In this document: in pieces, positions 21,043-45,671 of the stretch
How the letters are laid out: each line of letters opens with the position of its first letter
How positions within the stretch are numbered: the stretch's first letter is position 1
Origin: Macrolepiota albuminosa
Lineage: Eukaryota; Basidiomycota; Agaricomycetes; Agaricales; Agaricaceae
Assembly: GCA_027475525.1 (NCBI GenBank)
Contig: JAMWFC010000085.1
Location: 434,001 to 498,000 of the forward strand
Length of the DNA stretch: 64,000 nt
Direction: 5' to 3'
Position numbers and translations under genes: made by a program
The notes under the pieces: generated by a model
Database searches by the model: none
What the model was told of the DNA's origin: nothing
What the model saw: only the letters and a program-made list of their open reading frames with translations

Positions 21043-21196
21043 TAAAATAGAGCAGAGCCTGAGGGCTGGATGAGTCAGATCTGGAACATCAGAGTGATTG
21101 AGCTCATGCAGTGTATTGTTAAAATAGAGCAGAGCCTGAGGGCTGGATGAGTCAGATCTGGAACATCAGAGTGATTGAGCTCATGCAGTGTATTGT
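21043..21196 (+). repeat. 77-bp tandem duplication
   Basis: Two identical 77-bp units, 21043-21119 and 21120-21196, beginning TAAAATAGAGCAGAG. One of twelve duplications in the window with exactly this period. Confidence 0.95.
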
Positions 21197-21262
21197 GCAA
21201 GTGTCAGAATAGCACTAAAATAGGCATTGGCTCAAGGTGATGGAATACTGATAGCAGGTGAC

Positions 21263-21729
21263 TATCAGAGGACTCCTCATTTCTTCCTTCCTTCACTCCT
21301 TATTTCTTCTGCTCTCCTTTCATTCATTCTCTTATTTCTTCTGACATTATTTTTTTACTATCTCTATTCTTTCAACACTACCTGTTAGTACTATTCTCAG
21401 CCCTTGAGGTGCTCTGGTTCTTTAGCTACCATTCAGACAAGTGTGGGCCCCTCAGCACCACTTCCAGACTGCTTACATAAGCCAGAGTTTGCCAGAGTTT
21501 GCCCCTTATTCAGACAAGTGTGGGCCCCTCAGCACCACTTCCAGACTGCTTACATAAGCCAGAGTTTGCCAGAGTTTGCCCCTTATCTGTGCAATTATTT
21601 GTGTAGGCAATTTTTGAGTTTTTAAGGTTTTGTTGTACTGTACAGTTGTTTCCCATGCTTCAGAGGCCCCAGAAGCATCCAACCTGGCATAGGAAATCCC
21701 TAGACTTGTTCTCTTTGGATCTCCCTCTG
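21263..21729 (+). repeat. LTR of decayed family B, first of two adjacent copies
   Basis: Starts TATCAGAGGACTCC (the second copy has TGTCAGGGGACTCC) and ends CTTTGGATCTCCCTCTG, directly abutting the second LTR. It is homologous to the reverse complement of 48105-48508. Without the internal 77-bp duplication it would be about 390 bp. Confidence 0.7.
21431..21584 (+). repeat. 77-bp tandem duplication
   Basis: Identical units 21431-21507 and 21508-21584, beginning ATTCAGACAAGTGTGGGCC, inside the first family B LTR. The second LTR and the copy near 48300 carry this segment once. Confidence 0.95.
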
Positions 21730-22200
21730 TGTCAGGGGACTCCTCATTTCTTCCTTTTCTCACTCCTTATCTCTTCACTCTCCCTTCATTCATTCTTTTA
21801 TTTCTTCTGACATTATTTCCTCATTTCTTCCTTTTCTCACTCCTTATCTCTTCACTCTCCCTTCATTCATTCTTTTATTTCTTCTGACATTATTCCATTT
21901 TACTGTTTCTATTTTTTCAACACTATCTGTTAGTACTACTCTCAGCCCTTGAGGTGCTCTGGTTCTTTAGCTACCATTCAGACAAGTGTGGGCCCCTCAG
22001 CACTGCTTCCAGACTGCTTATATAAGCCAGAGTTTGCCAGAGTTTGCTCCTTATTTGTGCAATTGTTTGTGTAGGCAATTATTGAGTTTTTAAGGTTTTG
22101 TTGTACTGTACAGTTGTTTCCCATGCTTCAGAGGCCCCAGAAGCATCCAACCTGGCATAGGGAATCCCTAGACTTGTTCTCTTTGGATCTCCCTCTGCCA
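21730..22200 (+). repeat. LTR of decayed family B, second adjacent copy
   Basis: Starts TGTCAGGGGACTCC and ends GATCTCCCTCTGCCA, with TG...CA termini. Without its 77-bp duplication it is about 394 bp. The following sequence (22260-22340) matches the leader and gag-start region of family B near 48000 on the other strand. Confidence 0.75.
21741..21894 (+). repeat. 77-bp tandem duplication
   Basis: Identical pyrimidine-rich units 21741-21817 and 21818-21894, beginning TCCTCATTTCTTCC, inside the second family B LTR. Confidence 0.95.
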
Positions 22201-22811
22201 GGTAAGTAGCTATCATGATATTGTCAGTATATATTCTAATACACTTTGGATCTCCCTCTGCCAGCTGTATGACTGAGCCACAGCCTCTAGAGGTTGCCTT
22301 TACAATGACAGCATTAATAGCAAGTAGTGAAATGCTGAAGGTTGGTGTCAGAGCTGATAGAGCATGGCACTGAATGTTGAGTATTGGATCTGATCAGGCA
22401 GTGGCATTTCAGAGAAACTCAGCAGATGTCAGGTCTGATTAGATAGCAGCAAACTATTGAGGCCAGCTTATGCTGGGATCAGTGGTCAGTTGTGTAGATA
22501 AAACAGAGTCTTGGTCCTTAGTGACTCCATATAATGTGGTCAACTGATAAATATATTACTTGTAAATATAACAGAGTTTTAGTCTACCAGATAAGTAAGT
22601 ACCTATGAGTACAGTGAAATGTAGATAAGCTCACCCTCAGTGACTCTATATAATGTGGTCAACTAAAGGTGGTGGGTTTTCTATTTTAGATATATAAAAA
22701 AATATTAAGGTCTGCTTATAAAGAATAGCAAATATGTAATGTTATTGTTGGTATATAGCACAATTGAAGAAACAGAGAGAGATTCTTAAACAGAGAGAGA
22801 TTCCTAGATAG
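22201..22811 (+). pseudogene. Leader and gag-start relic of family B retrotransposon
   Basis: The segment around 22260-22320 (GAGCCACAGCCTCTAGAGGTTGCC) matches the reverse complement near 48010-48040, which reads TEPQPLEVAL in one frame. The rest is A/T-rich with no open frame. The outer Ty3/gypsy element begins just after it. Confidence 0.55.
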
Positions 22812-22816
22812 AAAAG

Positions 22817-23068
22817 TGTAACAGGGGGACCTCTTTGAGGTCCCTATTCATTATTTTACTACACCCGCACCCTTAGGGGTGCGGGCAGCATATTGTATTA
22901 GCGGAAATAATTACAGTAGTAATTATTTCCTCAATTAATTTACTGTTAAATTATACTGTATTTACTTGTATTTGGGTAGATACTTTTTTACTTACACTAC
23001 GTACAGAGAAATCTACCGATTTGGCAGATTCTGTGTCTTGTGTGAGTAAGCCAGTAATTTCTCTTACA
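22817..23068 (+). repeat. 5' LTR of the outer element
   Basis: 252 bp, TGTAACAGGGGG to TCTCTTACA. It contains three consecutive perfect hairpins (22826-22844, 22864-22885 and 22903-22930). It differs from the 3' LTR at CTACGTACAG versus CTACATACAG. Confidence 0.95.
22826..22930 (+). repeat. Three perfect inverted repeats in the outer LTR
   Basis: GGGACCTC-TTT-GAGGTCCC (8-bp stem, 22826-22844). CCCGCACCC/GGGTGCGGG (9-bp stem, 4-nt loop, 22864-22885). GGAAATAATTAC/GTAATTATTTCC (12-bp stem, AGTA loop, 22903-22930). All three recur in the 3' LTR. Confidence 0.9.
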
Positions 23069-23123
23069 CTTTTTTGAATCGTCAAATGACGATAATCTGT
23101 ACGCAAACATTCAAAAACTATAC

Positions 23124-23146
23124 ATTCTAGAACTTAGTTCTAGAAT
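23124..23146 (+). repeat. Perfect hairpin in the outer element leader
   Basis: ATTCTAGAAC-TTA-GTTCTAGAAT gives a 10-bp perfect stem between the 5' LTR and gag. No conventional TGG-initial tRNA primer-binding site follows the LTR. Confidence 0.85.
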
Positions 23147-23203
23147 CTCAATTGACAGTAACATCAACCATCAAGCTTCTTGAGTGCCGAACGCAAGCCG
23201 GGA

Positions 23204-26200
23204 ATGGAGCACGAACCTCTGCCACCAGAACGGAACGACAATGTCGCCCCGGTGCAAAAGGACGAGAATGCCACACCAGTGGCAGCGCATACTCGAGATC
23301 AGCAGGTGGCAAGTTGGGAGGAGGCTGAGGTCGAGCTGACCCCAGCCCGAACCGATATGCTGGGGAGTTTGCTTATGACAGAGCAGAGACGTCCAATCCA
23401 GCGTAGAGTTAGAAGAGAGGTTGGGGTGGCTAGTGAGTCACCGCCGATCATACAGGTACCTCAAAGGGCACCGGTGCTATTCTCGGGATTAAGGACGTCG
23501 GGCGTGGGTGTGGCCACGCATGAGGAAAAAAGACCATCTCCGTTTAGGGCAGGGGCTCCTGGGACGGCAGGAGAGGCTTGGACAAGTTCGGAAGGTAGAC
23601 GAGAGGAATTCTCCCAGGAGACACCATGGAGAAATATACCAGAATCGACACCATTGAGTCGACGACCTGGAGGGCAGCGGCCAGTAGCACCGGTGCAGAC
23701 TGCGGGGACAAAAAGACATCAGCCCACAGTGGTTGATGATACGTCTGATGAAGACAAGAATGGACGCTATGAAGCGACCCTCGACGTTCAAGTAGCTATG
23801 CTTTGGGCAAGGTTCCCAGAGATAAGTAAGTTGTCGACGAGGGCTAGGTTGAAGTTGTATGTGAACAAGCACATGCAGTTGATAGAGGCTAGAGGTGATG
23901 CGCTCCCTGAGGTGGGAACAGATGAGTACATTTCGGCCTATATGCAGATTCTGGACCTGGAAGCTCAAAGCTACCTCGACCGTAAAAGGCGCCGAGGGTC
24001 TGCTGCGTCCACCCCAGCGGATGTGGAGCTAATCCCTACGATTCCTGCAGGGAGAGGGAGTTCACCTCACATTGAGGAGGCTTTTAGCAACATATTTGCT
24101 CCACAACAGGCGGGGGAGACTCTGGAGCAATACCAGACGCGAGTAGCAGCTGGGCAGAGGCAGCAGCAGTTTGTAGGATACCGACCTACAGCTATGTCCG
24201 TGGCCGAGACGGTGACTTCCAGACCGGCTACACATGTACTGTTGGAAACAGTACCGGAGGAAGTGTTGTCACCTCAGGTAAAACGAGAAGCGGAGGAACC
24301 AGTGGTGCCGGCTAGGGTACCACTTGCCGACACGTTTCAGGACCGAGTCGCATTCCAAAGAATGCGGATCCAGGATTTACGGGGGCAAGGCTACTTTCGT
24401 ATTGATGATCAGGGAATTAGTTTCAATGGGCCCCAACCCATTGATGAAATGAGGCGAGAATTTGTGGAACGTGCGCAGAACAGTCGTCGAAATAAGCACG
24501 GGAGCGATATCAGCAGTCGAGAGGAGCCACGGGGGTTGGGGCCGGATAGACGGAATGGAGGGCAGGGCCCTCGGGACGACAGATCTCACGGCCCCAGAGG
24601 ACCGATGACTCGGTCTGTGCGAGCCTTCTCAACGTTCGTCCCCGCTGAGAGATGCAACAAGACACCTGGGATGAATGAGGCCACCAGAGCCTACACTGAT
24701 AGCATGCATCGACGACTGGTGAGCATAATCGATGACGCGGTTGGGATTGCATTGCAATTACCCGAAGGGATCAAACCACGGAGGGCTGATCCAAAGCATA
24801 TTCTGCCCTATAAGGGGGGAACAAAGTTCAGCGAGCTGGAGGATTGGACAATGGATGTATGCTACCATCTGGCAGCATGCCTGTACGGTGGAGATCGTAT
24901 GGACAAGGAGCGAGTGTTTGTGCTGCCCAAGTTTTTGGAAGGTCCGGCAAAGAGGTGGTTTTGTCATCACGTCCTTCACCATAATCGGGCGAGGCAGCAC
25001 TGGACGTTCAAAGATGTGATCCTTGAACTGTACAATCGATTTGTAAGTGCATCCACAATGCAGGATGCACGAGAGGCGTTTTACTCGGCAGTGTACACCG
25101 AGGCCCTCGGAGTACAAGGGTTCTATGATACCCTTGTTGACCATGCTCAAAATATGGCCATTTATCCCGACGCATGGACTGTGTGCGAGACCTTTCTTAA
25201 GGGCATACCTGCTGAGATGAGGCGAGTGCTAATCCGGGATGACGGATTATCTCCAGAAATAAATGAAGTTGAGGAATTCGTAGCGCATGCCATACGTTAC
25301 GAACAGGCGTTGAAGACGGCACGCCACTTTGATCTGCATAGCTCGCGAGTAAAAGCTGTGGGGCCAATGGAGGCATGCCAGTCACGAATGATCGGCACGT
25401 TCCTGGTCAGGAAAGCGGACATGGAACGTAACCAAAACCCTAGGTTCGTATTGAGACGAACGTTGTCGAGGCCTCATCGACCTAAGCCGATTGAGCCAAA
25501 ACTTGTGGCTGAAGAGCATGGTCACAATCCGCCAAAACCTGAGGCCAATCGTGACCTGCATAAAGAGCGGGGAACAGGCCCGGGTGGGATGGGTGAAAAA
25601 CGCATAGTAACATGCTATGCGTGCAGTGAGAAAGGACATTTCGCGAGCACTTGCCCTAGAAGGGGGCAAATAGCGGGTAAACCACGAGCGTATGTACACG
25701 CCGTGCACACTGAAGCAGAGGAATCTGCGAATGACGCAGATGAGGAACCGGACGTGGAGGAGGAGGATGAGAGCTCCCAGTCTGGCGATGAGGGTCCAGC
25801 TGATGACGAGGTAGAGACAGTGATGATCGATGGGGATGAGTATGTGGAAGTGGATGTGTACGACTCGGAGCTCTATGCTAGTTCTGCAGAACAAGATTTC
25901 TTGATGGCGTTAACGGACTTTCCTGAGGATGAGGAAAGCATGCAGTTGGGCGTGGGTCGAGTGAAGGTTCACAAAGTGAAACTTAGGAAGGCAGCACGCA
26001 AGTTGATCCGGCCGCAACTGCGATGTGAGGATAAGGAATGTTTGGCTACCTACGTCAAGGTGGGAGGTCACAAAGCATGGACGTTGTGGGATTCGGGAAG
26101 TACAACTACAGGAGTAACGCCCCAGTTCTGTCAGGTCCATGACTTGGCGGTGCATCAGTTGGAGCGGCCCATAACTCTGCAGCTTGGTACTGTAGGCAGT

Positions 26201-26473
26201 CGCGCTGCAGTACAGTTTGGAGCAAACCTCGAGCTATCTGTCCCGGGGTCAACAAGTGTTGAATACGTGGACGTGGCGAACTTTGACCGGTACGACATGA
26301 TTGTCGGGACGCCGTACATGCGCAAGCACCAGGTGGTACTTGACTTCTGCAATAACAAAGTTATTGTAGCTGGCACTGAAATCCTGGCAGTGCGGGTCGC
26401 AGTGGAAGAAGCTGGAGAGAGAGTTCGTCGCCACCGCGCGACGGAGAGGAAGCGAGCGGTGGGCACCAATTGA
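23204..26473 (+). CDS. Gag and aspartic protease of the outer element
   Basis: Long open frame; the ATG at 23204 is the first after an in-frame TTG at 23180. The N-terminal half is low-complexity and charged. The capsid-like domain is around codons 520-700 (LEDWTMDVCYHLAACLYGGD, FLEGPAKRWF). A zinc knuckle CYACSEKGHFASTC (C-x2-C-x4-H-x4-C) lies at 25613-25654. An acidic linker follows, then a retropepsin-like protease with LWDSGSTTTGVTP (active Asp near 26090) and YDMIVGTPYM. The frame ends at TGA 26471-26473. The sequence after that stop stays open in the same frame up to the 77-bp duplication at 26579, so gag-pro-pol may originally have been one frame. Acts in cytoplasmic particle assembly and polyprotein processing. 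Confidence 0.9.
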   Translation: MEHEPLPPERNDNVAPVQKDENATPVAAHTRDQQVASWEEAEVELTPARTDMLGSLLMTEQRRPIQRRVRREVGVASESPPIIQVPQRAPVLFSGLRTSGVGVATHEEKRPSPFRAGAPGTAGEAWTSSEGRREEFSQETPWRNIPESTPLSRRPGGQRPVAPVQTAGTKRHQPTVVDDTSDEDKNGRYEATLDVQVAMLWARFPEISKLSTRARLKLYVNKHMQLIEARGDALPEVGTDEYISAYMQILDLEAQSYLDRKRRRGSAASTPADVELIPTIPAGRGSSPHIEEAFSNIFAPQQAGETLEQYQTRVAAGQRQQQFVGYRPTAMSVAETVTSRPATHVLLETVPEEVLSPQVKREAEEPVVPARVPLADTFQDRVAFQRMRIQDLRGQGYFRIDDQGISFNGPQPIDEMRREFVERAQNSRRNKHGSDISSREEPRGLGPDRRNGGQGPRDDRSHGPRGPMTRSVRAFSTFVPAERCNKTPGMNEATRAYTDSMHRRLVSIIDDAVGIALQLPEGIKPRRADPKHILPYKGGTKFSELEDWTMDVCYHLAACLYGGDRMDKERVFVLPKFLEGPAKRWFCHHVLHHNRARQHWTFKDVILELYNRFVSASTMQDAREAFYSAVYTEALGVQGFYDTLVDHAQNMAIYPDAWTVCETFLKGIPAEMRRVLIRDDGLSPEINEVEEFVAHAIRYEQALKTARHFDLHSSRVKAVGPMEACQSRMIGTFLVRKADMERNQNPRFVLRRTLSRPHRPKPIEPKLVAEEHGHNPPKPEANRDLHKERGTGPGGMGEKRIVTCYACSEKGHFASTCPRRGQIAGKPRAYVHAVHTEAEESANDADEEPDVEEEDESSQSGDEGPADDEVETVMIDGDEYVEVDVYDSELYASSAEQDFLMALTDFPEDEESMQLGVGRVKVHKVKLRKAARKLIRPQLRCEDKECLATYVKVGGHKAWTLWDSGSTTTGVTPQFCQVHDLAVHQLERPITLQLGTVGSRAAVQFGANLELSVPGSTSVEYVDVANFDRYDMIVGTPYMRKHQVVLDFCNNKVIVAGTEILAVRVAVEEAGERVRRHRATERKRAVGTN

Positions 26474-29400
26474 CTATGCTCGGGGGCGCTACCGGCTACC
26501 GTGGAGGATGAGCCAGAGGAGGTAAACCCTATCAGAGGCTTACCCAAGGAGTGTGGAGCGATCCTGATGTCCATGGAAGAATGGGCTAAGTATGAGAGTG
26601 TGCAAAGGGAGGAACTCACCGCAGGTGCGGTGGGTGGTCAGGATGTGCATTGCACGAATGGGCTAAGTATGAGAGTGTGCAAAGGGAGGAACTCACCGCA
26701 GGTGCGGTGGGTGGTCAGGATGTGCATTGCACCCGGCCAACGCGGCCGCAGAAGCGGTCTGTCAGAAGGGAATGCCAACCTACATCGTCGAAGGTGAAGG
26801 TTGAAGAGCTAGTTTGTGAGGAACCTCCGATGGACCCACTGAATGGAGACTGGGAGGATGAGGTAGAGTGTAGCGAACAGTCGCACCGATCCTTATGGGA
26901 CTGGCCGGTACCTCCACCAGCGTTTGATTGGGCGTTCGATCCGCAAATGCCTAGAGAATGGAACGAGCTGGTGGCATCCATGTGTGCCTGGGAAGGTCGA
27001 CCATGGATTCGGCAGACCGAGGTCTATCGACAGGCGAGGGATGATGAGATATCCTTTCCGGAGGAAATCCAGGTGGACGGGGCGTCGATTTCGGCGCGAC
27101 GAGTCAGGAAGGAGAGACTGTATCGTCTACAGGTGCCAGACGACAGTGAGGAGAGGTTGTGAGCACTTCGGGAGAAATATGCTACTACCCAGATAGTGGG
27201 CAGTAGTGGGAGGAGGCTAAACAAGCCGCCACAAGCCAAGGACAAAGGCAAGGTCAGGGCAACTGGGTTGTCCCGAGATGATATTCCAGAGCTCTGCCGA
27301 CAGTGGCAGGAGGAGTTTGCGGATATGGTCAATGGCACTAAGGAGGAGCTGCCACCGTGGCGTGAGGTGAACCATGAAATTAACCTAGTCGATGATACAA
27401 AACAGTACAAGTACCATCTACCACGTTGCCCCATGGCCCTACAGCAGCAGCTGCGGGATAAAACAAACCGTTACCTCAGGGCCCGGTGGTGGGAGGCGAG
27501 ACCTGCGTCGCAGGCCGCGCCATTGCTGTGCATTCTGAAGAAGGATGGGACATTATGCACGGCACTGGACGCACGCCAGCGCAACGATAACACTATTAAG
27601 GATGTGACCCCGCTTCCTGATCAGGAAGTGATTCGTGAAGATGTGGCTCGGGCGAAAGTCAGGTCAAAAATCGATCTGACGGACGCATACGAACAAGTTC
27701 GAATACGGGAGAGTGATGTCGGGAAGACCGTGTTTTCATTGATTACCGGCACCTATGTCAGCAACATAATGCAGATAGGTGACTGTAATGCCCCAGCAAC
27801 CTTTCAGAGGTTGATGACATCGATTTTCCGTGATGTCATCGGACGATTCATGCACGTATATCTTGATGACATCTTCATTTACTCGGACTCCATTGAGGAG
27901 CACGAGAAGCATCTCCGTGTTGTGTTCGAGCGCTTACGTTCGAACCTATTGTACTTGAAGTGGAAGAAGTGCGAGTTGTATGCGGACCGGGTGGACTGCC
28001 TGGGACATGTTATTGACGATGAAGGTATTCATCCTGACCAGGATAAATTGGATCAGATTCGTGACTAGCGGACGCCACGAAACTACAACAATGTGCAGCG
28101 GTTTGTTGGGCTGGTAAACTACGTATCGACGTTCCTGCCGGATGTCACGACATACACGGGGCCACTGATGGCCATCACACAAAACAGGGCGCCATTTGTA
28201 TGACGGCCACTGCACCAACGCTGTTTGGACATGATTAAACAAATATGTGATTGCACGCTGATCATACGTCCCATTGATCCGCGACGAAATGAACCAATAT
28301 GGCTCATTTGTGATGCATCGAAGACGAGAGTGGGAGCAATGTATGGACAGGGACAGTCCTGGCAAACTTGCCGCCCAGCCGGGTTTATGTCGAAGAAGTT
28401 CACGAATGCGCAGCAGAATTACGCTGTGCATGAGTTGGAGACATTGGCTATATTAGAGGCCCTCCTGAAATGGGAGGACAAGCTGATGGGGTATGATATT
28501 CATATCATAACCGACCACAAAGCGCTTGAGTTCTTCAAAACCCAGGCGAACTTATCTCCGCGTCAGCGGCGATGGATTGATTACATGTCGCGGTACAAGT
28601 TTGACATAACATATGTCAAAGGGGAGCTTAACAAGGTAGCGGACTGTTTGTCGCGCTACTTTGAGAGTGACCGACTAGATGAAGCCCATGAAGCTCATCA
28701 CTATGTCAATGCGGATATACGTATTGACCCAGAAGGGGACGACATCCCTTACCAACGGTATCGGGAGATTAAGGACCATGTGGTGGACATTTGAGCCATG
28801 CAGGTTCGAGAGCATCGGCGAAGTAAGCGGTTGCAAGAGCGGCAGGAGGCACACGATAGTGAGGCGGAACATCTCAAGGTCACGGGTGCTGGGGCCGAGG
28901 TGGGCTCTAGTGGACGCACTGCGGATGCGGGCGACGGGGATATGCGGCTGGCAGACGCACTATGTGCGCCTGCTGAGACGAAGTCTGCCCCTCGGGACTA
29001 CCATTGATCTGAATTTTGAAAGGCAGTGATACTGGGGTATTCAGAGGATAGGCTATGTACAGAGGTGTTGACGCGGCCCAAGGATCACCCTAGTTTTTCA
29101 GTGCGTCAGGAGCTGATCTACACTGCTAGCGCTAGTGGCCAGCAGGTTCTGTGCTTGCCCCGGCAGCGTGCATTGATCACAGAGGTGATCAATCAGGCAC
29201 ATGGGGTGGTTGGGCATTTTGGGTCACAGAAAACGCTAGAATATGTGCGGCATTGGTATTGGTGGTCGAAGATGCATGCTGATGTACTGGCGTTTTGCAC
29301 CACTTGCGAGTTGTGCCAACGGGCGAAAGGGGCCAACCGTAAACCGGCTGGCAAGCTGCACTCGCTACCTGTGCCCACGAAGCCATGGGACTCCATCGGG

Positions 29401-30504
29401 ATGGACTTTGTTGGCCCGTTTCCTGAGTCCAAGGGGTTCAACTACTTGTGGGTAGTGATATGCAGGATGACGAGTATGGTACACTTGATACCGGTGTGCA
29501 CCACAATGAAGGCCTCGGAGCTCTCATGGATTTACTTGAAGGAAATCGTGCGGTTGCACGGGCTGCCGAGCTCGATTGTTAGCGATTGGGATTCAAAGTT
29601 CACGTCAAAGTGGTGGCGAGAGCTTCACGTGATGATGGGCGCAAAGCTGCTGATGTCAACCTCGTTCCATCCGCAGACGGATGGACAGACGGAGTGAGCA
29701 AACCGTAACGTGGCACAGATATTGCGCACGGTAGTGCAACCAGACCAGCGGGACTGGGTAGACCGAGTACCCCTGACGGAGTTTGCGATAAACGCTAGTG
29801 TGTCGGAGACAACAGGGTATGCCCTGTTCGAGTTGAATGGGGGGTTCTTGCCCTCCATGCTTCAGGAGTTGCGTGCCAATGTAGCGGTGCATAAGGGAGT
29901 TAAAGACTTTGCGCGGACTGCCCTGGAGAATTTAGCAAACGCGCATGATGCAATCATTGAAGCACGCGTGTTTCAATCAAAATATGCGAATAGGAGGCGA
30001 GCGGAGGAGCCATTGCTGGCCGTAGGGGCACTGGTATATCTATCAACGCAAAATTTGAACCTACCCAAGGGCAGGGCGAGCAAGCTATGCCCGAAGTATA
30101 TTGGTCCATATAAAATCATACAGGCCGAGCCAAAGACGTCAAACTATGTACTGGAGTTGCCTACGGCACTGCAGGCACGACATATTGTACCGAAGTTCCA
30201 TGTATCACTGCTTCGACCCTTCAGGCCGAATGATGATGCATTGTTCCCTGGACGGGTGGTCCCAGAAGCTTATGACTTCGGGGCGAAGGATGATCAGGAG
30301 TGGTTTGTCGAGGACCTAGTAGGCCATCGGTGGAACGAGGCTGGGGGTCTGGAGTACGAGGTACGGTGGAGCTTGGGTGATACGACATGGGAGCCGCATC
30401 AGGAGTGTGCCAAGTTGGCCGCCTTGGATCGGTATTTGGAGTTGCATGGCGTGAAGCGCCCTGCACAGTTGCCGAGGAAGGACAGGGCTCGGGGAGCCAT
30501 GTGA
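26474..30504 (+). pseudogene. Pol of the outer element: RT, RNase H, integrase, chromodomain; several stops
   Basis: After the 77-bp duplication (26579-26732) one frame runs to 30504. Domains: reverse transcriptase with LCILKKDGTLCTALDAR, FSLITGTYVSNIMQIGDCNA and catalytic YLDDIFIYSD (near 27860); RNase H with LICDASKTRVGAMYGQG and ITDHKALEFF (28300-28540); integrase zinc region (VVGHFGSQKTLEYVRHWYWW, then CTTCELCQRAKG, 29200-29330) and core with MDFVGPFPES and IVSDWDSKF, then DGQTE; chromodomain at the end (GLEYEVRWSLGDTTWEPHQE, near 30350). In-frame stops occur at about 27160, 28066, 28201, 28792, 29005, 29017 and 29695. By comparison with the family, several replaced Trp (TGG) or Arg (CGA) codons. 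It therefore cannot give a full product as assembled. Confidence 0.9.
26579..26732 (+). repeat. 77-bp tandem duplication between gag-pro and pol
   Basis: Identical units 26579-26655 and 26656-26732, beginning GAATGGGCTAAGTATGAG. Because 77 is not a multiple of 3, the extra copy shifts the frame. With a single copy, the frame of gag-pro and the frame of pol coincide. Confidence 0.95.
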
Positions 30505-30592
30505 ATGTGGCAGATGAGTTGCATGGCGTGAAGCGCCCTGCACAGTTGCCGAGGAAGGACAGGGCTTGGGGAGCCATGTGAATGTGGCGGAT
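30439..30592 (+). repeat. 77-bp tandem duplication at the end of pol
   Basis: Units 30439-30515 and 30516-30592, beginning GAGTTGCATGGCGTGAAG. They differ at two transition sites (CTCGGGG/CTTGGGG and GGCAGAT/GGCGGAT), the only one of the twelve that I saw with mismatches. Confidence 0.93.
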
Positions 30593-33211: not shown

Positions 33212-34146
33212 TGATGACGCCCAGAGTTTGGTCAGTAACAAATGTAACAATAGTGTTACCGTACCAAAAGCTTGCGTTGGGCGCGCTATAAGTGATGTGA
33301 GGAGTCCTGGGCAGGCCCCAGAGAACGCGCCTGTGAAAAAGGGGAAAAGTCGGTAACGGAGTCGGCAAGTGTAAAGCGCTAAGGTAAAGCGCCTAGGAAA
33401 GGGCGGTAAGCGAACACGGCAATGTGAGCGGCAAGAGCACGGTATGCTTAGCGAAGTCTAAGCGTCGATAATGCCTGACGTAGCTGCAAGGCGCAAATAT
33501 GTCGAGTGTTGGCAAGCGTCTGTAACTGCCGATGAGTTCGACGTTGCCGACCGTAAATGAGCTCTTGAGCGTAAGGGAGACTGAAGAAAGGGGAGCAGGA
33601 AACTCTGGTCTGTTGTTCTGTGTTCTATGTACAAGTCGGTAAGTACTATATATACTACAAGGAGTTCACCGTCGCCAGTGACCAACCATCGCCAAAGTGC
33701 GGTAAACTGGAAAATTTCATAGGGGTAGCTCCAACGGTTTCAGATCCCTACCGTCCTTTCAAGACCCTTGGCACCACCAGGCAGCAGATCGCAGTGCTAA
33801 ACCATCAATCCATCACCCTTCTGCCTGTCAGAACACCTAAGCGACGTTGGGCGCCAAATCGAGACGCTAAGCGGTGTCAGACGCCAAGGTCAAACGCCAA
33901 GCTGTCCATCAGTTTTTGATAGATCATCAGGCTTCTCCCTAAGCGCTGTCGTCAGTGACTGATGCCATCTGTCAGTTGTCATTCTTGCTGCCGTCGGCGC
34001 TATCACTGATTGGATCTGCTTCTTGCCGTGCGCGGCCGTCAAATATCGCCAAACTTGGTTAATTAGCGCGCGCTAAGGTATTTTGAGCCTGTGCTGTGTT
34101 GCCATAGCCTGCCGTTGATGCGCTGATCCTGTATGGGGTCCTATCA
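33212..34146 (-). repeat. 3' LTR of the inner element (left)
   Basis: 935 bp. Differs from the right LTR at about 14 sites by eye (about 1.5%), mostly transitions, for example GGGCGGTAAG/GGGTGGTAAG and GTGCGCGGCC/GTGCACGGCC. Confidence 0.93.
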
Positions 34147-34316: not shown

Positions 34317-36691
34317 ATGTCCTTCCGTATTCCAACTCCGCCCCCCGTCCCATCTCGCGAGGCTCAAGACGCCGCCTCCGCCTACATTGACAAGGCCAAC
34401 AACTTTATTAGACGCATCGAGGTTGTGGGCGCGGAGGCGCCTCCAAACTTGGTCATTGCCGTGATGAAGTTGTTAGAGCGCTGGTACGAAGTTCGCGTCC
34501 TTGGCATTGGCTGGGACAGAGAAATTGAAGTGCGGGAGTGGTGCCGGGCGTGGTACGTCGACAATTGTGGCGCCGACTGGTTAGCGCCGTTTTCTCGTTT
34601 TGTAAGTAGTTTTAGTCCTTGCCGTGTTGCTAGCTGATTGGTCCCTAGGCGCCTCCTCCCGTTCCGACCATTGAGGACGAATTGGAGGACATCCTCTCTG
34701 GCGCCTTGCCAATGACGGTAAGCACGCCAGCGCCTGAGTGAGTATCTCTAACTGTGGATTTCTAACTTAGCTGTGGTCGGATCTGTCCCCTCATAGTAAG
34801 CAAGAGGTATTGGCGCCTCTCGCCAATTTGCAGGTGGACGCCGAGATGGTGGCAATTCGCGAGAGCGTGCTAGAAGAGGCCTCCCGTGACGCCAAGGAGA
34901 GGACCAAGGCATTGGAGGAGCGAGAAGTCGCCAGTTGCAAGGAGGCAGATGTCTGATGTGAAGGATTCCCACGCCGGTAGTGCCCAGAGCCCAGCACTGC
35001 CGGCAAGCAAATCGGGCTCTCCGGTCAAGCCTGGCAAGACTTTGAAAAAGAAGGTAAGTTTGAGGGTTCTTACCGCTGGCGACTTCTGCTTATCCCACTC
35101 TCAGTCTCGTAAGGCTGCCGCCCCTCATTACACGGTAAGTCCGTTACACCAAGGTACCTTCCCTGCTAACCAAATAGTTGGCAGACGCCAACGCAAACTT
35201 CTTTTAGCGATGCCGAGCTGAAGGGTTTGCTGGTAGCACGACGAGATGAGGCGGTTTTGGATAAGGGAATGGAAGCGGGAGTGGTCTTGCCGGAGATGAA
35301 GGATAAGAAGACGGCAAGCCCAGCGGCAAGATGGGAGTTCAAGGACTCCCAAGGAGTGGTAAGTACTATGGCCTTCCTTACCGCTCTTGTTAACATTCTT
35401 GCAGTGCGACAAGTGCTGGGCTGACAACGACCCAGAGGGGTGTTGGTACCCCACGGGTGGCCAGCCCTGCTACCGGTGCGGTACTCTGAAGAGGGCCTGC
35501 ACTCTGGATGGCGCCAAGAGTCGAGAATGCGGTGGCACCCCAGACGCGGTAGTGGAGCGCACCTTCAAGCACGCCGTCCTTGTTAAGAGGGCTCGGGAGT
35601 TCGTTGAAGGAGAGAGGAAGAAGAAGGCCGCAGGAGACACGGCAACCATCAGCAAGAGTTCCCTGGCGCTGCCGACGCGTCAAGGGGACAAAAACAAAAT
35701 GGTCGGTAATCGTGGCGCCGGTGAGCACCAAGGGACTGCGGTCCCTTCAAAAAGACAAGTCTCTTCGCCTGCCAAGGGGAAGGGCAAGGCCAAATGTGCG
35801 CAGGTAGAGTCTCCTCCCTCTACCCCTGAAGACGTGGAGATGGAGGAGCTGGAGAAGGCGCTTGCTGCCAGCCGCCTGCCGCCGAGGGACCCTGAAGCCG
35901 GGCCTAGCAAGTTGCTTTCCCCCATCCACCTGAGGGGGGTTTCTCTGCTGGCTGCCGATGAGAACGACGCGGTAATGGGTCCGCCGCCAAGAGAGGAGCC
36001 TCAAGAGGCGGCCATGGCTGGTGACCAGGATGCGGACAGGGAGGATGACGTGAGTGCAGGAGAGGCGGTAGCGGTAGCGGGGGGCGATAAGGATCTGGCG
36101 GCCGACAAAACGTTGGCGACGCAGCGGGAGGGTGGGGAGGAAGAGGCATCAGTAAGGGAGGTAGTGGAAGGAGAGGAGGGGGCCACAGGGGTTGCCCGGA
36201 AGGAGCCTGAGTGGCGATGGCTGCCGCCTTACGGCAACATTGCCCCTTGGGAGGTGTCAGATCCCAAGGATGTTGCAGGGCTGGAGCCAAGGCGCCCTGT
36301 GATCGCCAGGATTAATCCTGCCTGGACCCCTCAGCCACAGCCGACAGTGACTGACGACGCCTTTCAGTGGCTGGGTCAGGACCTCGTTTATCCGGTGATA
36401 GCGCTAAATCCTCGCGAGATGCTGGAGCGGTATTCAAGGAGGGCGGCAACGATGGCAACGTTGATAGAACGGGAATGGGAACGGGTGCGGGGACAGCTCA
36501 TGGCGCTTCGCTTGCGCTACTCCAACTTGGGCCGCAGCCTGCACGTTCTGCGAGATTACCAGGACGACTGCCAAGCCACCATGGATTGGCAGACCGCTAA
36601 CAACATCTTGCTGGGCGACCTCCTTCCTCTGCGCGACTCTTCTTTGCCGGTATCTGATAGTTCCCTGCCGCTAGAGGACGATAGCGATTGA
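34317..36691 (+). CDS. Antisense, intron-containing gene inside the inner element; Cys-rich putative zinc domain
   Basis: Runs opposite to the element's gag-pol. Exons seen: 34317-34601 (starts MSFRIPTPPPVPSREAQDAA), 34649-34717, 34771 onward (DAEMVAIRESVLEEASRDAK), a block around 34950-35054 ending TLKKK, a short one near 35106-35135, about 35190-35358 (DAELKGLLVARRDEAVLDKG) and 35405-36691. All introns have GT-AG ends on the plus strand. A one-base frame conflict near 34935-34950 is unresolved and may be an indel. The last exon opens with CDKCWADNDPEGCWYP, then CYRCGTLKRACTLDG and a further Cys. This Cys pattern suggests zinc binding and resembles Cys-rich motifs seen in agaricomycete hypothetical proteins. 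The middle is Lys- and Glu/Ala-rich. The C-terminus may form helices (EREWERVRGQLMALRLRY) and ends in an acidic tail. It could be a captured host gene or an element-encoded accessory protein. Confidence 0.65.
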
Positions 36692-36790
36692 GCGGACCTT
36701 AGCGTAGATAGGCCTCTTCTTTGCCGGTATCTGATAGTTCCCTGCCGCTAGAGGACGATAGCGATTGAGCGGACCTTAGCGTAGATAGGC
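36637..36790 (+). repeat. 77-bp tandem duplication at the 3' end of the antisense gene
   Basis: Identical units 36637-36713 and 36714-36790, beginning CTCTTCTTTGCCGGTATC. The stop codon at 36689-36691 lies in the first unit, so the product is unaffected. Confidence 0.95.
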
Positions 36791-39700
36791 CGCTTATGTT
36801 TATATTGTTTTTATTGGCGCCTCATATATCTATTTTTGCTGTTTCCCTGCCGAGTGAACAGATAAGTCTAGTAATTTGAGTTAGCGCAACGGCTGAAAGC
36901 CAAGAAAGTAAAGCAAAGAGAACGCAAGCAACAAGTATTCTAAGGTAGGTTTTAGCAAGAGCATTTGTATGTGAGGGACTTAGACAAATTTTGAGGAAAA
37001 AGGGAAACGCTCAGTAGATCATCATAGCGAAAAACCCTTGGCGAGAGTTGCGCATGGCGCTAAGCGTTGGCGACACGCTAGCGCTGCGACTTGACTATGT
37101 AAGGAATTGTCTGTTGGATATAGTATAGTAAGCATCGGCAAGAAAGATAAGTAAGATAAGTAATAGAAAGAAAGAGCTTATCAATATATAGTCTTTTCTA
37201 ATCATTTTCTTCTTCTTCAACTAGAGTCGGCAAGTCATCATCGTCCAATAATTCGGTTTCTTCAAGTTCTCTCAGCTTGGCGGTGTCAATATCTAGCGCT
37301 TCAAGCGGCAAGTCGATTTGTTCCCTGGCGAGATACGGCAATAGGCAAAAAGCGGCAACAGGTCGATGCAGTACTGAACCATCTAATTCACAGAGCACGT
37401 AAGCGCCTCCACGGTTACAAGAGATAACTACCAAAGGTCCTAGATAGCGAGGGCGCATTTTCTTGTTGTATGAGGTTTCAATTTTAGAGTTGCGCATAAG
37501 CACTAGCGCTCCTCTCGGGAAGTTGTAATCCTTGATAGTAGCGCTATGCTCGGTTTCGAATCGTAGGGCTGCTTGGCGACGTGCGCTAAAGACTACCTCG
37601 TGGAGTCGCTCTAAATCTTCTTTCCTTCGCTGGAGATCAATAGCTCGTCTGGCGATAAGGTCGGTAGTCGCTAAGATGCTGTTGGGTGCTGGCTGAAGAT
37701 AGGTCGCTTCTATAATGTCGGCAGGGAGTAACGGATGGGTGCCAGTAGCCACGTAATAGGGAGAGCAACCCATGCGCTTACGAATGGTAACTCTTTCCGA
37801 CCAAAATACTGAGTAAGTCGCTTCACTCCAACGAGACTCGTCGCCATCGACTGCCTTGAAGAGCGCTTGCCGAACGTCAAAGTGTGGTCTCTCTACCAGG
37901 CCATTGGCGCGCTTGTTGTAGCCAGATACTCGAATGTGATGGATATTGTATTTCTTGGCGAGGTAAGTTAGCGCTTTGATAATGGGCGCACCGTTATCCG
38001 TGACGATTTCTCTTAGCGCTCCCCAACGGCAAATGACGTCCTCAAATAGCCACTTGGCGACCGCGTCGGTATTTTCTCTTTGGAGCATTCGAAATTCAGG
38101 CCAGTGGATTAGCGAACAACGACCTTGAATGATGTACTTGTAGCGACCGGATTTGGGCATGTGCATGGTATCGACGTAAATTTTGCTGAAGAGAGGAGCT
38201 GGCGTTGCAACGGTTGGCGGAATGAGCACTTGGCGTGTCTGTTGAATTTGGCAAAGGTGGCAAGTCCTAATGTACCAGGCGATGTCGGCACTAGCGTGTG
38301 GCCACCAGAATCGTTCTAGCAGAGAAGCTCGGGTAGTGTACAGACCTCTATGTCCTAGTTCGTCATGCATGGTGCGCAGGACTCGTAAGCGACTTTCTGG
38401 CTTGATGATCAGCTTGTGAGCGCCATCTCGATTTTGTCGCCAAAGTCGGTTGTCGGTAAAGAAGAAACGGGTAGCATATCGGATAAAGGTCGCGTATTGC
38501 TTGTCGGTAAGGCCTGCGGGTCGCTTGAGGTCTTGTAGCCATTGTTCAACGATTAACAAGCGACTGTCTTCTGCCTTTGCTTTGGCGGATCGGGGGACGG
38601 CATCGTAGGTCAAGTTTTCGCTGTCTTCTCTTAGCGGATGTGGTTCTTGTACGACTTTTACTGGAGGCGAGTTTTGACCGAAGATGCTTGCCGTGTAGAA
38701 TGTGAGGGGTGCACTAAAGGTCTCGGGGTGGTAAGGGACAATGGGATGTAAAAAGATACTGGTAGGCTGTTGCCATCGTAGTAGGGGGATTGGCTGTTGT
38801 ATGAGGTGCACGAAACCATGTAAGCGGTCGATCCAGTCCTCGAAATCGCTATCAACCTGTGGATCCACTGCCGGGTTGCCAGGTTGCCGTGGTCGCCTAG
38901 AGAGTCCATCTGGTCCATGGAAAGAGCTCTTGACATGTACCAATTCAAAGTGAAACATAAGAATAGCGACCACCCAACGGTTCATGCTAGCGGATGGCTG
39001 GATGTCAGGATTCTGCAGCATGCCTTTGATGTACCTAGCGTCGACTTCAACAATCAGATTCCGCACGCCAATCAAATACATCTTTAGCGACCGGAAGGCT
39101 TTGAAGAGTCCATAGAGCTCTAGCTTAGGCTGACTGTAGCAAGACTCTCTGTCGTTTAGCGTGATAGACCCAAAGCGGTTGTAATGTCGCTGTTTCCAAT
39201 TGTCGCTAAGGCACTGGCACAAGAAGTAGCCAACGGCAATGTACGAGGTATCCACCGCCAAGATAACTGGGTCGGCAGAGCTATAGTTGATAGGAACTAG
39301 GGGTTTGGCGTCTTGTAGGGCTTTCACTAAATCTTGCTGTGCAGTGACCTGGTCTGGCCCAAATTCGAAGGGCTCGTTGGCGCGGGTGAGTCGGTTAAGA
39401 GCATGTGCGCGATGGGCAAAGTTTTTGACGAATATCCTGAGAACGCCAACGGTGCCAAGAAAGGTGCGAACTTCAGATAAGTCGCGGCAAGGACCCCATC
39501 GCTCCAGGAGTGCTAAGCGAGACTCGTCGGGAGTGCAGATGTGACCAAGTATCTTGAACCTTGGCGCGCAAAGGAGGAGTTTGTGACCGCTAAACGTACC
39601 ACCGCTATACTTCATACGTTGGAGAACTCGGTTGAGCAACTGGAAAAAGTCCCATAGCGCTAATCGAATATTGGGGTTGTCGGGATGGGTCGCAGGTAAG

Positions 39701-40288: not shown

Positions 40289-40442
40289 AAGGCTTTGTCT
40301 TGCTTAGCGACAAGATCAGTAAGGACGTTCAACTCATCTTTGGTCAAAAATCCTGTGTCGTGCTCAAGGCTTTGTCTTGCTTAGCGACAAGATCAGTAAG
40401 GACGTTCAACTCATCTTTGGTCAAAAATCCTGTGTCGTGCTC
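40289..40442 (+). repeat. 77-bp tandem duplication in inner pol
   Basis: Identical units 40289-40365 and 40366-40442, beginning AAGGCTTTGTCTTGC. It shifts the pol frame upstream of RT. Confidence 0.95.
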
Positions 40443-41072: not shown

Positions 41073-41226
41073 CGTTGTCCCCTAGGGAACGTTGGCACCG
41101 TTCGTCGGATTCCGGAATTGGGGTCGCTAATTGTGAGGGTCGTTTCCTCCGTTGTCCCCTAGGGAACGTTGGCACCGTTCGTCGGATTCCGGAATTGGGG
41201 TCGCTAATTGTGAGGGTCGTTTCCTC
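41073..41226 (+). repeat. 77-bp tandem duplication in inner protease region
   Basis: Identical units 41073-41149 and 41150-41226, beginning CGTTGTCCCCTAGGG. It shifts the frame just after the protease domain. Confidence 0.95.
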
Positions 41227-42083: not shown

Positions 42084-42237
42084 CGGTAACTTGCTAGTGG
42101 GAGGCATTGGCTTGTATCCTTTAAGAGGTTGTTTAGGCTGCTTAACTTCAACCCCATCAACGGTAACTTGCTAGTGGGAGGCATTGGCTTGTATCCTTTA
42201 AGAGGTTGTTTAGGCTGCTTAACTTCAACCCCATCAA
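42084..42237 (+). repeat. 77-bp tandem duplication in inner gag
   Basis: Identical units 42084-42160 and 42161-42237, beginning CGGTAACTTGCTAGTGGG. The extra unit diverts the gag tail into another frame. Confidence 0.95.
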
Positions 42238-43052
42238 AAACCTGGTTCTTTAGCAAATCCAGCTCCTGTTGGAGCTTGGCGATACGCTCTTCCTGCGAGA
42301 AAGTAGGGCGGTCGCCAACGCTGTCGAAGTGTAAGACCTCGTGAATCATTTGCTGTTGAGTCGCCTGGTCAGGGTCGGGGTTGGCATTGCCGGAAAGCGT
42401 GCCGGTGACAATTTGTCCTGGATTGCACCTATGCCATTCATCAACTCGCTCCTGGAAGGACTTCTTGTCTGGGTAGTTGGGGATGGTGGCGCCAGTGGTT
42501 AGGACTATCTTGCTGTCGATAGCCCTTCGAATTCTCCCTTGCCGAATATAATTTTTGAGAGTAGTGCAGCGTCCTCTAGTCATAGTATGGCCAATTTCCC
42601 CACAGAAGTGGCAAGGGCCAGGTGCAGGTACGTTAGCGGGTCGGTTCGCAGTGAGGTTGGTGGTAATCATGGTTTCAATACGAGTCATAGCAGAAGTGAC
42701 AGCGGCGGTAATGGCAGCATTGAGCTCCTCTTTCTTGATGAAGTCGGTAGTAGGAGGCAGGATGGGAATAATACCGTTGGTTCGCTCAGGGGGTGGGCTC
42801 ATCCTAGCGCGTGGTATACCAACGCCAGTGTCCGTTCCCTTGAGAACCCATTTACCGGCTTCAAAGACGTCGGCAACGTTATAGGGCTCGTCAGGGTGAT
42901 GGGCCTGATGAACTATCTCTAGGCGACGACCAATACGAGTCCAAAGCGAAGTCGGGATGCCTTGTTGGAACAGGCGACGTTCCTTGTTAATATAGAGCTT
43001 GCCGTTCTGCAGAAGCCACCTAGCAATTTTCTGGAACTCGCGGTAATATGTA

Positions 43053-43206
43053 GAGAATGCGCCAAGCAAAGACGTGCCGTTGTCGAAAGATTCCTGAACT
43101 AATTTCTGCAACTCGTTTACCGTGTATCGGAGAATGCGCCAAGCAAAGACGTGCCGTTGTCGAAAGATTCCTGAACTAATTTCTGCAACTCGTTTACCGT
43201 GTATCG
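43053..43206 (+). repeat. 77-bp tandem duplication in inner gag
   Basis: Identical units 43053-43129 and 43130-43206, beginning GAGAATGCGCCAAGC. It separates two blocks of gag that otherwise join in frame. Confidence 0.95.
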
Positions 43207-43367
43207 GGTAGCCTCTTCTGCGCCAGGGTACAGCTGGATCACTGCCGTCTTCCAGTTCTCATACGAAGCACCTCGGGCGGGAACAGGTGGGGTGGCAGGA
43301 ACAAAGGCGGCAAATTCGGTCAAACCTGTCCACGTTTCTGCCGTGTCATACGATACGTATCTAGCCA

Positions 43368-43521
43368 CGTACTCCTTCATCTGTGTGTGGTTGGTAATGT
43401 TACAATCTCTGAATAAATACTCTAATTCCTTGAAATACTGGGAGCGTACTCCTTCATCTGTGTGTGGTTGGTAATGTTACAATCTCTGAATAAATACTCT
43501 AATTCCTTGAAATACTGGGAG
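43368..43521 (+). repeat. 77-bp tandem duplication in inner gag
   Basis: Identical units 43368-43444 and 43445-43521, beginning CGTACTCCTTCATCTG, near the gag N-terminus. Confidence 0.95.
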
Positions 43522-43960
43522 AGCTCCCATGGCTTAGACTCGTCCCATTTCAGTGCCGAGAAGTGGTTGCGTGGCGGCATGCGCTGGACTTGTTGTTCCA
43601 TAGCGACTGTGTTGGCGAGTTCGGTTAGCGGTTGTGGGGAAGGGGTTCTAGAGATTGGCGACGGGGTAAGAGAAATGAGTTGTAAAAGAGGCGTTAGCAG
43701 AGTAATGGGGGTGACTGGTTGCGGTACGGTAAATGGCGACGCTAAGGGGTCGTCGGCGCTATAATCGAGGGAATGCGGGAAGAGATCAGGAAATGCGTCT
43801 ACAGTGGCGTTCTGTAGTTCCTGTGCGAGAGAGAGACCCGGTAAGGCACCAGGTGGTTGTGGAGTTGATGGGTGGGAAGGAGCTATGCCTTCTGCTGACT
43901 GGTCTAGCAGGCGGCGCCTACGCTGGAGACGGGTTTCTGGCGGAATTCTGCCCTAGAGAT

Positions 43961-43978
43961 CCCTCGCGGTGGGCTCCA
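43961..43978 (-). promoter_or_regulatory. Candidate tRNA primer-binding site of the inner element
   Basis: Minus strand TGGAGCCCACCGCGAGGG begins 3 bases inside the 5' LTR. The initial TGG fits a tRNA CCA end. Which tRNA is not established. Confidence 0.65.
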
Positions 43979-43981
43979 ATT

Positions 43982-44916
43982 TGATGACGCCCAGAGTTTG
44001 GTCAGTAACAAATGTAACAATAGTGTTACCGTACCAAAAGCTTGCGTTGGGCGCGCTATAAGTGATGTGAGGAGTCCTGGGCAGGCCCCAGAGAACGCGC
44101 CTGTGAAAAAGGGGAAAAGTCGGTAACGGAGTCGGCAAGTGTAAAGCGCTAAGGTAAAGCGCCTAGGAAAGGGTGGTAAGCGAACACGGCAAGGTGAGCG
44201 GCAAGAGCACGGTATGCTTAGCGAAGTCTAAGCGTCGATAATGCCTGCCATAGCTGCAAGGCGTGAATATGTCGAGTGTTGGCGAGTGTCTGTAACTGCC
44301 GATGAGTTCGACGTTGCCGACCGTAAATGAGCTCTTGAGCGTAAGGGAGACTGAAGAAAGGGGAGCAGGAAACTCTGGTCTGTTGTTCTGTGTTCTATGT
44401 ACAAGTCGGTAAGTACTATATATACTACAAGGAGTTCACCGTCGCCAGTGACCAACCATCGCCAAAGTGCGGTAAACTGGAAAATTTCATAGGGGTAGCT
44501 CCAACGGTTTCAGATCCCTACCGTCCTTTCAAGACCCTTGGCACCACCAGGCAGCAGATCGCAGTGCTAAACCATCAATCCATCACCCTTCTGCCTGTCA
44601 GAACACCTAAGCGACGTTGGGCGCCAAATCGAGACGCTAAGCGGTGTCAGACGCCAAGGTCAAACGCCAAGCTGTCCATCAGTTTTTGATAGATCATCAG
44701 GCTTCTCCCTAAGCGCTGTCGTCAGTGACTGATGCCATCTGTCAGTTGTCATTCTTGCTGCCGTCGGCGCTATCACTGATCAGATCTGCTTCTTGCCGTG
44801 CACGGCCGTCAAATATCGCCAAACTTGGTTAATTAGCATGCGCTAAGGTATTTTGAGCCTGTGCTGTGTTGCCGTAGCCTGCCGTTGATGCGCTGATCCT
44901 GTATGGGGTCCTATCA
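43982..44916 (-). repeat. 5' LTR of the inner element (right)
   Basis: 935 bp, same length and ends as the left LTR. Flanked on the right by CCGG (44917-44920). Confidence 0.93.
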
Positions 44917-44920
44917 CCGG

Positions 44921-45285
44921 ACTGGGATGGTTGGAGAACACCAACCACCGAAGACGTTCACCACCTTCAGGTATTGTTAGCAAAAGAGGAGGATGAGCAG
45001 CGCCGGTTTTACGCCCACCACGGGCTGCACTATTACATTGGGTCAGACCCCAATGTGCATCATCTATGGAAGCGGCAGGAGCAACATGGGCCCTTGCCCA
45101 CGAGCTGTCCGACCACAGGGGCTGGCACAGCACGGGAGTCCGACGTGCCGGAACGACCACCGGCCTCGGAGCCCTCCTCAAGGCCTCCGTCAGTCGATGA
45201 GCGCATGCAGTCTCCCCAGCTGGAGGACTATCCGTCTAGTCCGCCGGGGCCAATTGCGTCGCCTATCGCACCCACTATGGATTGA
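44921..45285 (+). pseudogene. Extra ORF (ORF3) of the outer element, 3' part
   Basis: Joins in frame with 30691-33211 when the inner element and one CCGG copy are discounted: codon CCG, then G plus AC gives GAC at the junction. Continues as DWDGWRTPTTEDVHHLQVLL, then HHGLHYYIGSDPNVHHLWKR. It ends in a Pro/Ser-rich tail at TGA 45283-45285, about 50 bases before the purine tract of the outer 3' LTR. Confidence 0.8.
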
Positions 45286-45330
45286 TATTGTTGGCCACAG
45301 AGTCCCGCATTGCAGACCGTACAACGGTCT

Positions 45331-45342
45331 GAAGAGGGGGTG
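45331..45342 (+). promoter_or_regulatory. Polypurine tract of the outer element
   Basis: GAAGAGGGGG followed by TG, immediately upstream of the 3' LTR start TGTAACAG. Confidence 0.75.
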
Positions 45343-45671
45343 TGTAACAGGGGGACCTCTTTGAGGTCCCTATTCATTATTTTACTACACCCGCACCCTT
45401 AGGGGTGCGGGCAGCATATTGTATTAGCGGAAATAATTACAGTAGTAATTATTTCCTCAATTAATTTACTGTTAAATTATACTGTATTTACTTGTATTTG
45501 GGTAGATACTTTTTTACTTACACTACTATTTCCTCAATTAATTTACTGTTAAATTATACTGTATTTACTTGTATTTGGGTAGATACTTTTTTACTTACAC
45601 TACATACAGAGAAATCTACCGATTTGGCAGATTCTGTGTCTTGTGTGAGTAAGCCAGTAATTTCTCTTACA
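45343..45671 (+). repeat. 3' LTR of the outer element
   Basis: 329 bp, exactly 77 bp longer than the 5' LTR because of an internal duplication. Followed by the target duplication AAAAG (45672-45676). Confidence 0.95.
45450..45603 (+). repeat. 77-bp tandem duplication inside the outer 3' LTR
   Basis: Identical units 45450-45526 and 45527-45603, beginning TATTTCCTCAATTAATT. The 5' LTR holds one copy only, which shows directly that the second copy is extra. Confidence 0.97.

What the first reader, a model, noticed from the sequence alone, without database searches (positions are those of the whole stretch)
21043..45603. Twelve tandem duplications with a period of exactly 77 bp, all in the transposon island
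Direct duplications begin at 21043, 21431, 21741, 26579, 30439, 36637, 40289, 41073, 42084, 43053, 43368 and 45450. Each is two head-to-tail copies with a 77-base offset and no further match beyond the two copies. They have unrelated sequences, so they are not one repeat family. One constant length shared by unrelated loci, only in repeats, is what results when assembly-graph pieces overlapping by a k-mer of 77 are joined without removing the overlap. A direct control is in the window: the outer 3' LTR (329 bp) is exactly 77 bp longer than the 5' LTR (252 bp). If correct, much of the apparent frame breakage of both Ty3/gypsy elements is artificial. The pair at 30439 differs at two sites, which may mean distinct repeat copies or alleles were joined.
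Basis: partly seen in the sequence, partly recalled or inferred. Interest (0 to 1): 0.9.

Follow-up and report, generated by a model that had tools for sequence, protein, structure and literature searches.

The report
Genome assembly scars of 77 bases
Twelve 77-base stutters in this genome are almost certainly a software error made when pieces of the genome were stitched together, not real DNA, and the same error recurs elsewhere in the assembly.

Summary
The artefact reading is strongly supported. In 59 loci holding other copies, period 77 occurs 101 times against 5 for all other periods 20-299. Run lengths fit a unit of exactly 77 plus chance flank matches. Where near-identical copies of the window's units were listed elsewhere, they were single; more diverged copies carry pairs nearby, mostly at other offsets. 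The duplicated 77-mer tends to be a de Bruijn branch point: 31 of 43 testable events have a different neighbouring base in another copy, against 292 of 3199 shifted controls, with a spike at shift 0. The only base differing between the outer element's LTRs lies immediately after the duplicated 77-mer. Two corollaries need correction. The scars are not confined to repeats: three occur in a 3.5-kb stretch that matched only itself, beside DEP/RGS domains. Several frame breaks of the outer element are not at a duplication. The tool is unknown; a SPAdes-type K=77 graph is my inference.

The parts
21043..21196 (.). 77-bp tandem pair, exact; left base differs in the one other exact copy, which is single
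21431..21586 (.). 77-bp tandem pair, exact (run 79); 17 other places within 1 mismatch all single; no immediate branch in the one exact copy
21741..21894 (.). 77-bp tandem pair, exact, near an LTR-like end; right-branch vertex; 17 other held copies of this block carry period-77 pairs, 1 within 3 bp of this start and 16 at other offsets
26579..26732 (.). 77-bp tandem pair, exact; right-branch vertex; four other exact copies single
30439..30592 (.). 77-bp tandem pair with 2 mismatches; ten other places within 2 mismatches single; the right base differs in one of the two exact copies of the first unit
36637..36791 (.). 77-bp tandem pair, exact (run 78); branch vertex at an allowed offset
40289..40442 (.). 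77-bp tandem pair, exact; no other exact copy in the genome, so the branch is not testable
41073..41226 (.). 77-bp tandem pair, exact; right-branch vertex; more diverged copies carry pairs nearby, one (L005) starting 1 bp away
42084..42237 (.). 77-bp tandem pair, exact; left-branch vertex; tandem only here among 100 listed of 212 places within 3 mismatches; three more diverged copies (L008, L015, L020) have pairs starting 1 bp away
43053..43207 (.). 77-bp tandem pair, exact (run 78); one other exact copy, single; no immediate branch seen
43368..43521 (.). 77-bp tandem pair, exact; left-branch vertex; one other exact copy, single
45450..45603 (.). 77-bp tandem pair, exact, inside the outer 3' LTR; right-branch vertex against the 5' LTR
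22817..23068 (+). outer element 5' LTR (252 bp), single-copy control for 45450; base 23001 G versus 45604 A is the only LTR difference besides the duplication
45343..45671 (+). outer element 3' LTR (329 bp), flanked by the same 5 bp AAAAG as the 5' LTR
33212..34146 (.). inner element LTR, no 77-bp duplication
43982..44916 (.). inner element LTR, no 77-bp duplication, 14 differences in 935 from its partner

Best explanation
The duplications are scars of genome assembly. Short-read de Bruijn graph pieces, whose neighbours share exactly 77 bases, were strung together along a path (probably guided by long reads or scaffolding) with the shared 77 bases written twice at some joins. Shown here: the unit is exactly 77, it recurs in the sampled parts of this assembly, near-identical copies listed elsewhere are single, and the unit is preferentially a 77-mer at which copies diverge by the adjacent base. 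Inferred: the software (a graph whose edges overlap by K=77, as in SPAdes, recalled), that the true DNA holds one copy at each site, and that the mismatches in a minority of pairs come from later polishing with reads of other copies.
For: Period 77 in 101 events against 5 for all other periods 20-299 in 59 loci, with 97 distinct units and 92 of 101 pairs exact (L015 and L017 overlap, so a few are counted twice). Excess of exact runs over 77 was 0, 1, 2, 3, 4 bases in 50, 25, 9, 2, 1 of 87 (L017 left out), against chance 48.9, 24.5, 9.2 and 4.4 for 3 or more (p 0.92). Pairs in 17 held copies of one LTR-like block start at many different offsets. Window units are tandem only in the window among listed near-identical places. 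Branch test: 29 of 39 against 34 of 295 controls; with overlaps removed 31 of 43 against 292 of 3199, and for runs of exactly 77, 19 of 25 at shift 0. Nine of twelve window sites show an immediate branch, two do not, one is untestable. The sole LTR-LTR base difference abuts the unit. Random 45 kb: five exact period-77 pairs.
Against: No reads, assembly log or independent assembly could be examined. Twelve of 43 testable events showed no branch, though only a small part of the genome was held. Sites 21431 and 43053 have an exact copy elsewhere without an immediate branch. The 30439 pair and 9 of 101 pairs in other loci carry mismatches, which a pure overlap join would not create. Five of 97 pairs in other loci start within 3 bp of a window pair (three at 42084, one at 41073, one at 21741), and 50 more within 150 bp; shared vertices would explain this, but so would shared ancestry, and these loci were ranked high because they carry a pair there. 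Pairs in single-copy DNA need another source of branching, such as a second haplotype, which was not shown.
Confidence: 0.97

Rival explanations
1. Real tandem duplications made in the organism by a process with a fixed 77-bp step, for example slippage or a staggered break.
For: The pairs are present in the assembly at many loci, including DNA that matched only itself.
Against: No spread around 77; 92 of 101 pairs without divergence inside elements whose copies differ by several percent; single in listed near-identical copies; positions tied to where other copies branch. I know of no process with such a fixed step (recalled).
Confidence: 0.015
2. Inherited duplications that arose once in ancestral elements and spread by transposition.
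For: 17 held copies of one LTR-like block carry a period-77 pair in the same neighbourhood, and five pairs in other loci start within 3 bp of a window pair.
Against: Most offsets differ from copy to copy (50 of 55 nearby pairs lie more than 3 bp away); the window's units are single in listed near-identical copies; the outer 5' LTR lacks the pair of the 3' LTR.
Confidence: 0.005
3. An assembly artefact of a neighbouring kind: a k=78 graph with k-1 overlap, or a gap-filler or read corrector that re-inserts the seed 77-mer, rather than joined SPAdes-type edges. (The confidence is a share within the 0.97 of the best explanation.)
For: Branches lie mostly on the right side in contig orientation (23 R, 6 L, 2 both; p 0.002 for 23 of 29), which fits left-to-right extension that stops at an out-branch and is then rejoined.
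Against: Nothing here separates these from plain edge concatenation; the assembly record was not seen.
Confidence: 0.35

Closest known systems
K-mer overlap between adjacent edges of a de Bruijn graph (SPAdes with K=77; recalled)
   Same: Constant overlap equal to K, located at branching vertices, repeats strongly affected.
   Different: Correct tools remove the overlap; here it is left in, and in the held sample more often at out-branches in contig orientation.
False duplications in genome assemblies (literature recalled; paper searches and look-ups failed)
   Same: Sequence present once in the genome but twice in the assembly.
   Different: As recalled, usual false duplications have variable lengths from uncollapsed haplotypes; these have one fixed length and lie head to tail.
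Target-site duplications of transposable elements
   Same: Fixed-length direct repeats associated with elements.
   Different: TSDs flank an insertion and here are about 4-5 bp; the 77-bp pairs are head to tail, mostly inside elements, and some lie in single-copy DNA.

Membership tests
Assembly-graph overlap artefact with K=77 | One unit length across unrelated sequences | tested here: met
Assembly-graph overlap artefact with K=77 | Two copies identical | tested here: inconclusive
   11 of 12 in the window and 92 of 101 in other loci identical; the rest have 1-2 mismatches
Assembly-graph overlap artefact with K=77 | Unit is a branching vertex of the k-mer graph | tested here: met
   31 of 43 against 292 of 3199 controls, spike at shift 0; 12 of 43 showed no branch in the held sample
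Assembly-graph overlap artefact with K=77 | Same sequence single in other copies of the element | tested here: met
   for listed near-identical copies; no other exact copy of the 40289 unit exists; some more diverged copies have their own pairs nearby
Assembly-graph overlap artefact with K=77 | Raw reads carry one copy | not testable with these tools
   no reads held
Assembly-graph overlap artefact with K=77 | Assembly record names a K=77 graph step | not testable with these tools
Genuine tandem duplication | Lengths vary and copies diverge with age | tested here: not met
Ty3/gypsy LTR retrotransposon (outer element) | LTR pair, short TSD, protease, reverse transcriptase before integrase | tested here: met
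   LTRs and AAAAG; RVP_2, RVT_1, then Integrase_H2C2, rve and SH3_Tf2-1 in that order; the chromodomain match is below Pfam's cut-off
Ty3/gypsy LTR retrotransposon (inner element) | LTR pair, TSD, reverse transcriptase and RNase H before integrase | tested here: inconclusive
   LTRs; RT_RNaseH before Integrase_H2C2 in window:37201-39858:-; no reverse transcriptase match in the two inner frames scanned; TSD boundary ambiguous (CCGG or ACCGG)

The most novel reading that the evidence does not exclude
The scars are a fossil of the assembly graph: each 77-bp pair marks a vertex where the reads branched. In single-copy DNA such as L085 they would point to polymorphism (for example a second nucleus or haplotype) that the finished assembly no longer shows. 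Any other genome built with the same pipeline would carry a detectable spike at one tandem period.
Probability: 0.4. Interest if true: 0.45.

Novelty: not a real feature. Interest (0 to 1): 0.33.

Why it matters
The assembly is likely to hold thousands of false 77-bp insertions: a random 45 kb in six pieces gives 5, which scales to roughly 3,600-26,000 genome-wide if representative. 77 is not a multiple of three, so a pair in coding DNA shifts the frame, makes elements look more decayed than they may be and distorts repeat annotation and LTR comparison. The period spectrum and the branch test give a simple screen for this error in other assemblies.

Tried and rejected
Inherited duplication was considered because 17 held copies of one LTR-like block have period-77 pairs; rejected as the main explanation since most offsets differ, though five pairs in other loci start within 3 bp of a window pair. 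'Only in repeats' was tested with random pieces and rejected, with the caveat that the search tool skips very common words. Identifying the assembly method from papers failed: each of the seven paper searches and look-ups returned an error, so statements about SPAdes and the false-duplication literature are recalled, and no claim is made that this artefact is unreported. That the genome is a fungus is my impression and was not tested.

Rows dropped: one search left out L001, L003, L033 (window) and L063 of 63 loci; one search's run-length count left out L017 too; one search left out L017 and counted runs of 40 or more (97 pairs). The branch test left out L001, L003, L033, L015 (overlaps L017) and L080 (overlaps L002), and imperfect pairs; one search counted both L015 and L017. 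L064-L079 were fetched because they hold copies of window units, so one search is partly a chosen sample; one search was run before them. The loci are the best-ranked matches, which favours copies that carry a pair near a window pair. The period scans used a 92% identity threshold and a low-complexity filter.
Full report
Observation. All twelve duplications are present at the stated starts with an offset of exactly 77. A scan of every period from 10 to 999 for exact runs of 25 or more found no other period outside one LTR-like block, where 468 and 545 appear. TRF agrees. Eleven pairs are identical and the one at 30439 has two mismatches.

Where it lies. The window is part of contig 68 of an unnamed 100.1-Mb assembly in 129 contigs. 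The island holds an outer Ty3/gypsy-type element with LTRs 22817-23068 and 45343-45671 between copies of AAAAG, and an inner element on the other strand with LTRs 33212-34146 and 43982-44916. Domains found in the outer element are RVP_2, RVT_1, Integrase_H2C2, rve and SH3_Tf2-1, with a chromodomain match below the cut-off; in the inner one, RNase H and Integrase_H2C2.

Period spectrum. Searches with single units and island segments returned loci of other copies. In 59 such loci period 77 occurs 101 times with 97 distinct units (92 exact, 6 with one and 3 with two mismatches), while all other periods from 20 to 299 give 5. L015 and L017 overlap, so a few events are counted twice. With L017 left out, 87 exact runs exceed 77 by 0, 1, 2, 3 or 4 bases in 50, 25, 9, 2 and 1 cases; chance matching of flanking bases predicts 48.9, 24.5, 9.2 and then 4.4 for three or more. 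Eleven further runs of 29-76 are imperfect or partial. The unit is therefore exactly 77.

Single state elsewhere. For 42084, 212 places match within three mismatches; of the 100 listed, only the window's two are adjacent. For 30439 the ten other places within two mismatches are single. So are four exact places for 26579, two one-mismatch places for 36637, one exact place each for 43053 and 43368, and 17 places within one mismatch for 21431. The 40289 unit has no other exact copy. For 21043 the one other match has one copy; 21741 and 41073 each have one other exact occurrence among the held loci; for 45450 the 5' LTR has one copy. In one search many copies align in segments that break at the window's duplications and overlap by about 77 bases in the other copy, as expected if that copy is single there.

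Pairs in more diverged copies. Of 97 period-77 pairs in the other loci, 89 map to the window and 55 fall within 150 bp of a window pair: 5 within 3 bp (three at 42084, one at 41073, one at 21741) and 50 at other offsets. For the block at 21741, 17 held copies carry a pair, at starts from 17 bp before to 57 bp after the window's; some copies share a start with each other. The loci were chosen by rank, which favours copies with a pair in that place. Recurrence at the same vertex is expected of a graph artefact; shared ancestry is not excluded for those five by offset alone.

Vertex test. If the pairs are unremoved overlaps of a K=77 graph, the unit should be a k-mer at which copies branch on the very next base. 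Before any targeted fetching, 29 of 39 events whose unit recurs in another held locus showed such a branch, against 34 of 295 shifted controls. With overlaps removed and small pieces around copies of window units added, 31 of 43 branched (23 right, 6 left, 2 both), against 292 of 3199 controls; random single-shift controls averaged 9% with a maximum of 25% in 200 draws. For events with runs of exactly 77, the rate was 19 of 25 at shift 0, 31 of 312 summed over shifts -15 to -1, 7 of 16 at shift +1 and 9 of 89 summed over shifts +2 to +15. In the window, 21043, 42084 and 43368 branch on the left, 21741, 26579, 30439, 41073 and 45450 on the right, and 36637 at an allowed offset of its 78-base run; 21431 and 43053 showed none, and 40289 is untestable. 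The outer LTRs differ, apart from the pair, at one base only, 23001 versus 45604, immediately after the unit.

Not only repeats. Six random pieces, 45 kb in all, hold five exact period-77 pairs, in two of the six pieces; the other periods seen were 81, 28 and 84. L085 holds three of them beside DEP and RGS domains, and its 3.5-kb stretch matched only itself. Branching there would need another cause, such as a second haplotype; this is inference.

Frames. 77 leaves a remainder of 2 on division by 3, so a pair inside coding DNA shifts the frame. In the inner element, the pairs at 40289, 41073, 42084 and 43053 touch open frames of 120 aa or more on its coding strand, of which one frame ends in the 40289 pair and one begins in the 43053 pair; 43368 touches none listed. 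In the outer element the breaks near 28.1, 28.8 and 29.7 kb are not at pairs, the stop at 26473 precedes the pair at 26579, and the stop at 30504 lies in the first copy of its pair. In 29 loci of inner-element copies (L004-L032, with L015 and L017 overlapping) the median longest open frame is 866 aa with no pair (n=1), 821.5 with one (n=8), 728 with two (n=9) and 470 with three or more (n=11). This is a correlation on loci of unequal length.

Interpretation. I conclude that the pairs are assembly scars (0.97). The specific software is not established. The right-branch excess (p 0.002) suggests a left-to-right extension that stops at out-branches; this too is inference, and in the window itself right and left are about even (5 and 3, with 36637 showing both).

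Noticed in passing
window 33212-34146 versus 43982-44916: The 14 differences between the inner LTRs are patchy: 8 in 33404-33517, 6 in 34011-34104, none in the 493 bases between. This could be a mosaic of graph pieces, gene conversion or mutation clusters.
   Followed up: no
held loci and window: Branches beside the duplicated 77-mer are mostly on the right in contig orientation (23 R, 6 L, 2 both), a polarity that may reveal how the assembler walked.
   Followed up: partly
L085:158-3494: Three exact 77-bp pairs flank a region with DEP and RGS domains that matched only itself; all five random-sample pairs lie outside the open frames in which a domain was found.
   Followed up: partly
window 21257-22304 and 48001-48513: An LTR-like block occurs twice in direct order and once inverted, at about 90-96% identity, on both sides of the nested elements.
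   Followed up: no
window 768-1211 (-) and 4535-5032 (+): Two similar open frames in opposite orientation that look like C-terminal parts of a Cys/Met-metabolism PLP enzyme (recalled, not searched).
   Followed up: no
L081:3856-4089 and L083:74-441: Tandem arrays with periods of about 81 and 28 and diverged copies, in contrast to the exact 77-bp pairs.
   Followed up: no
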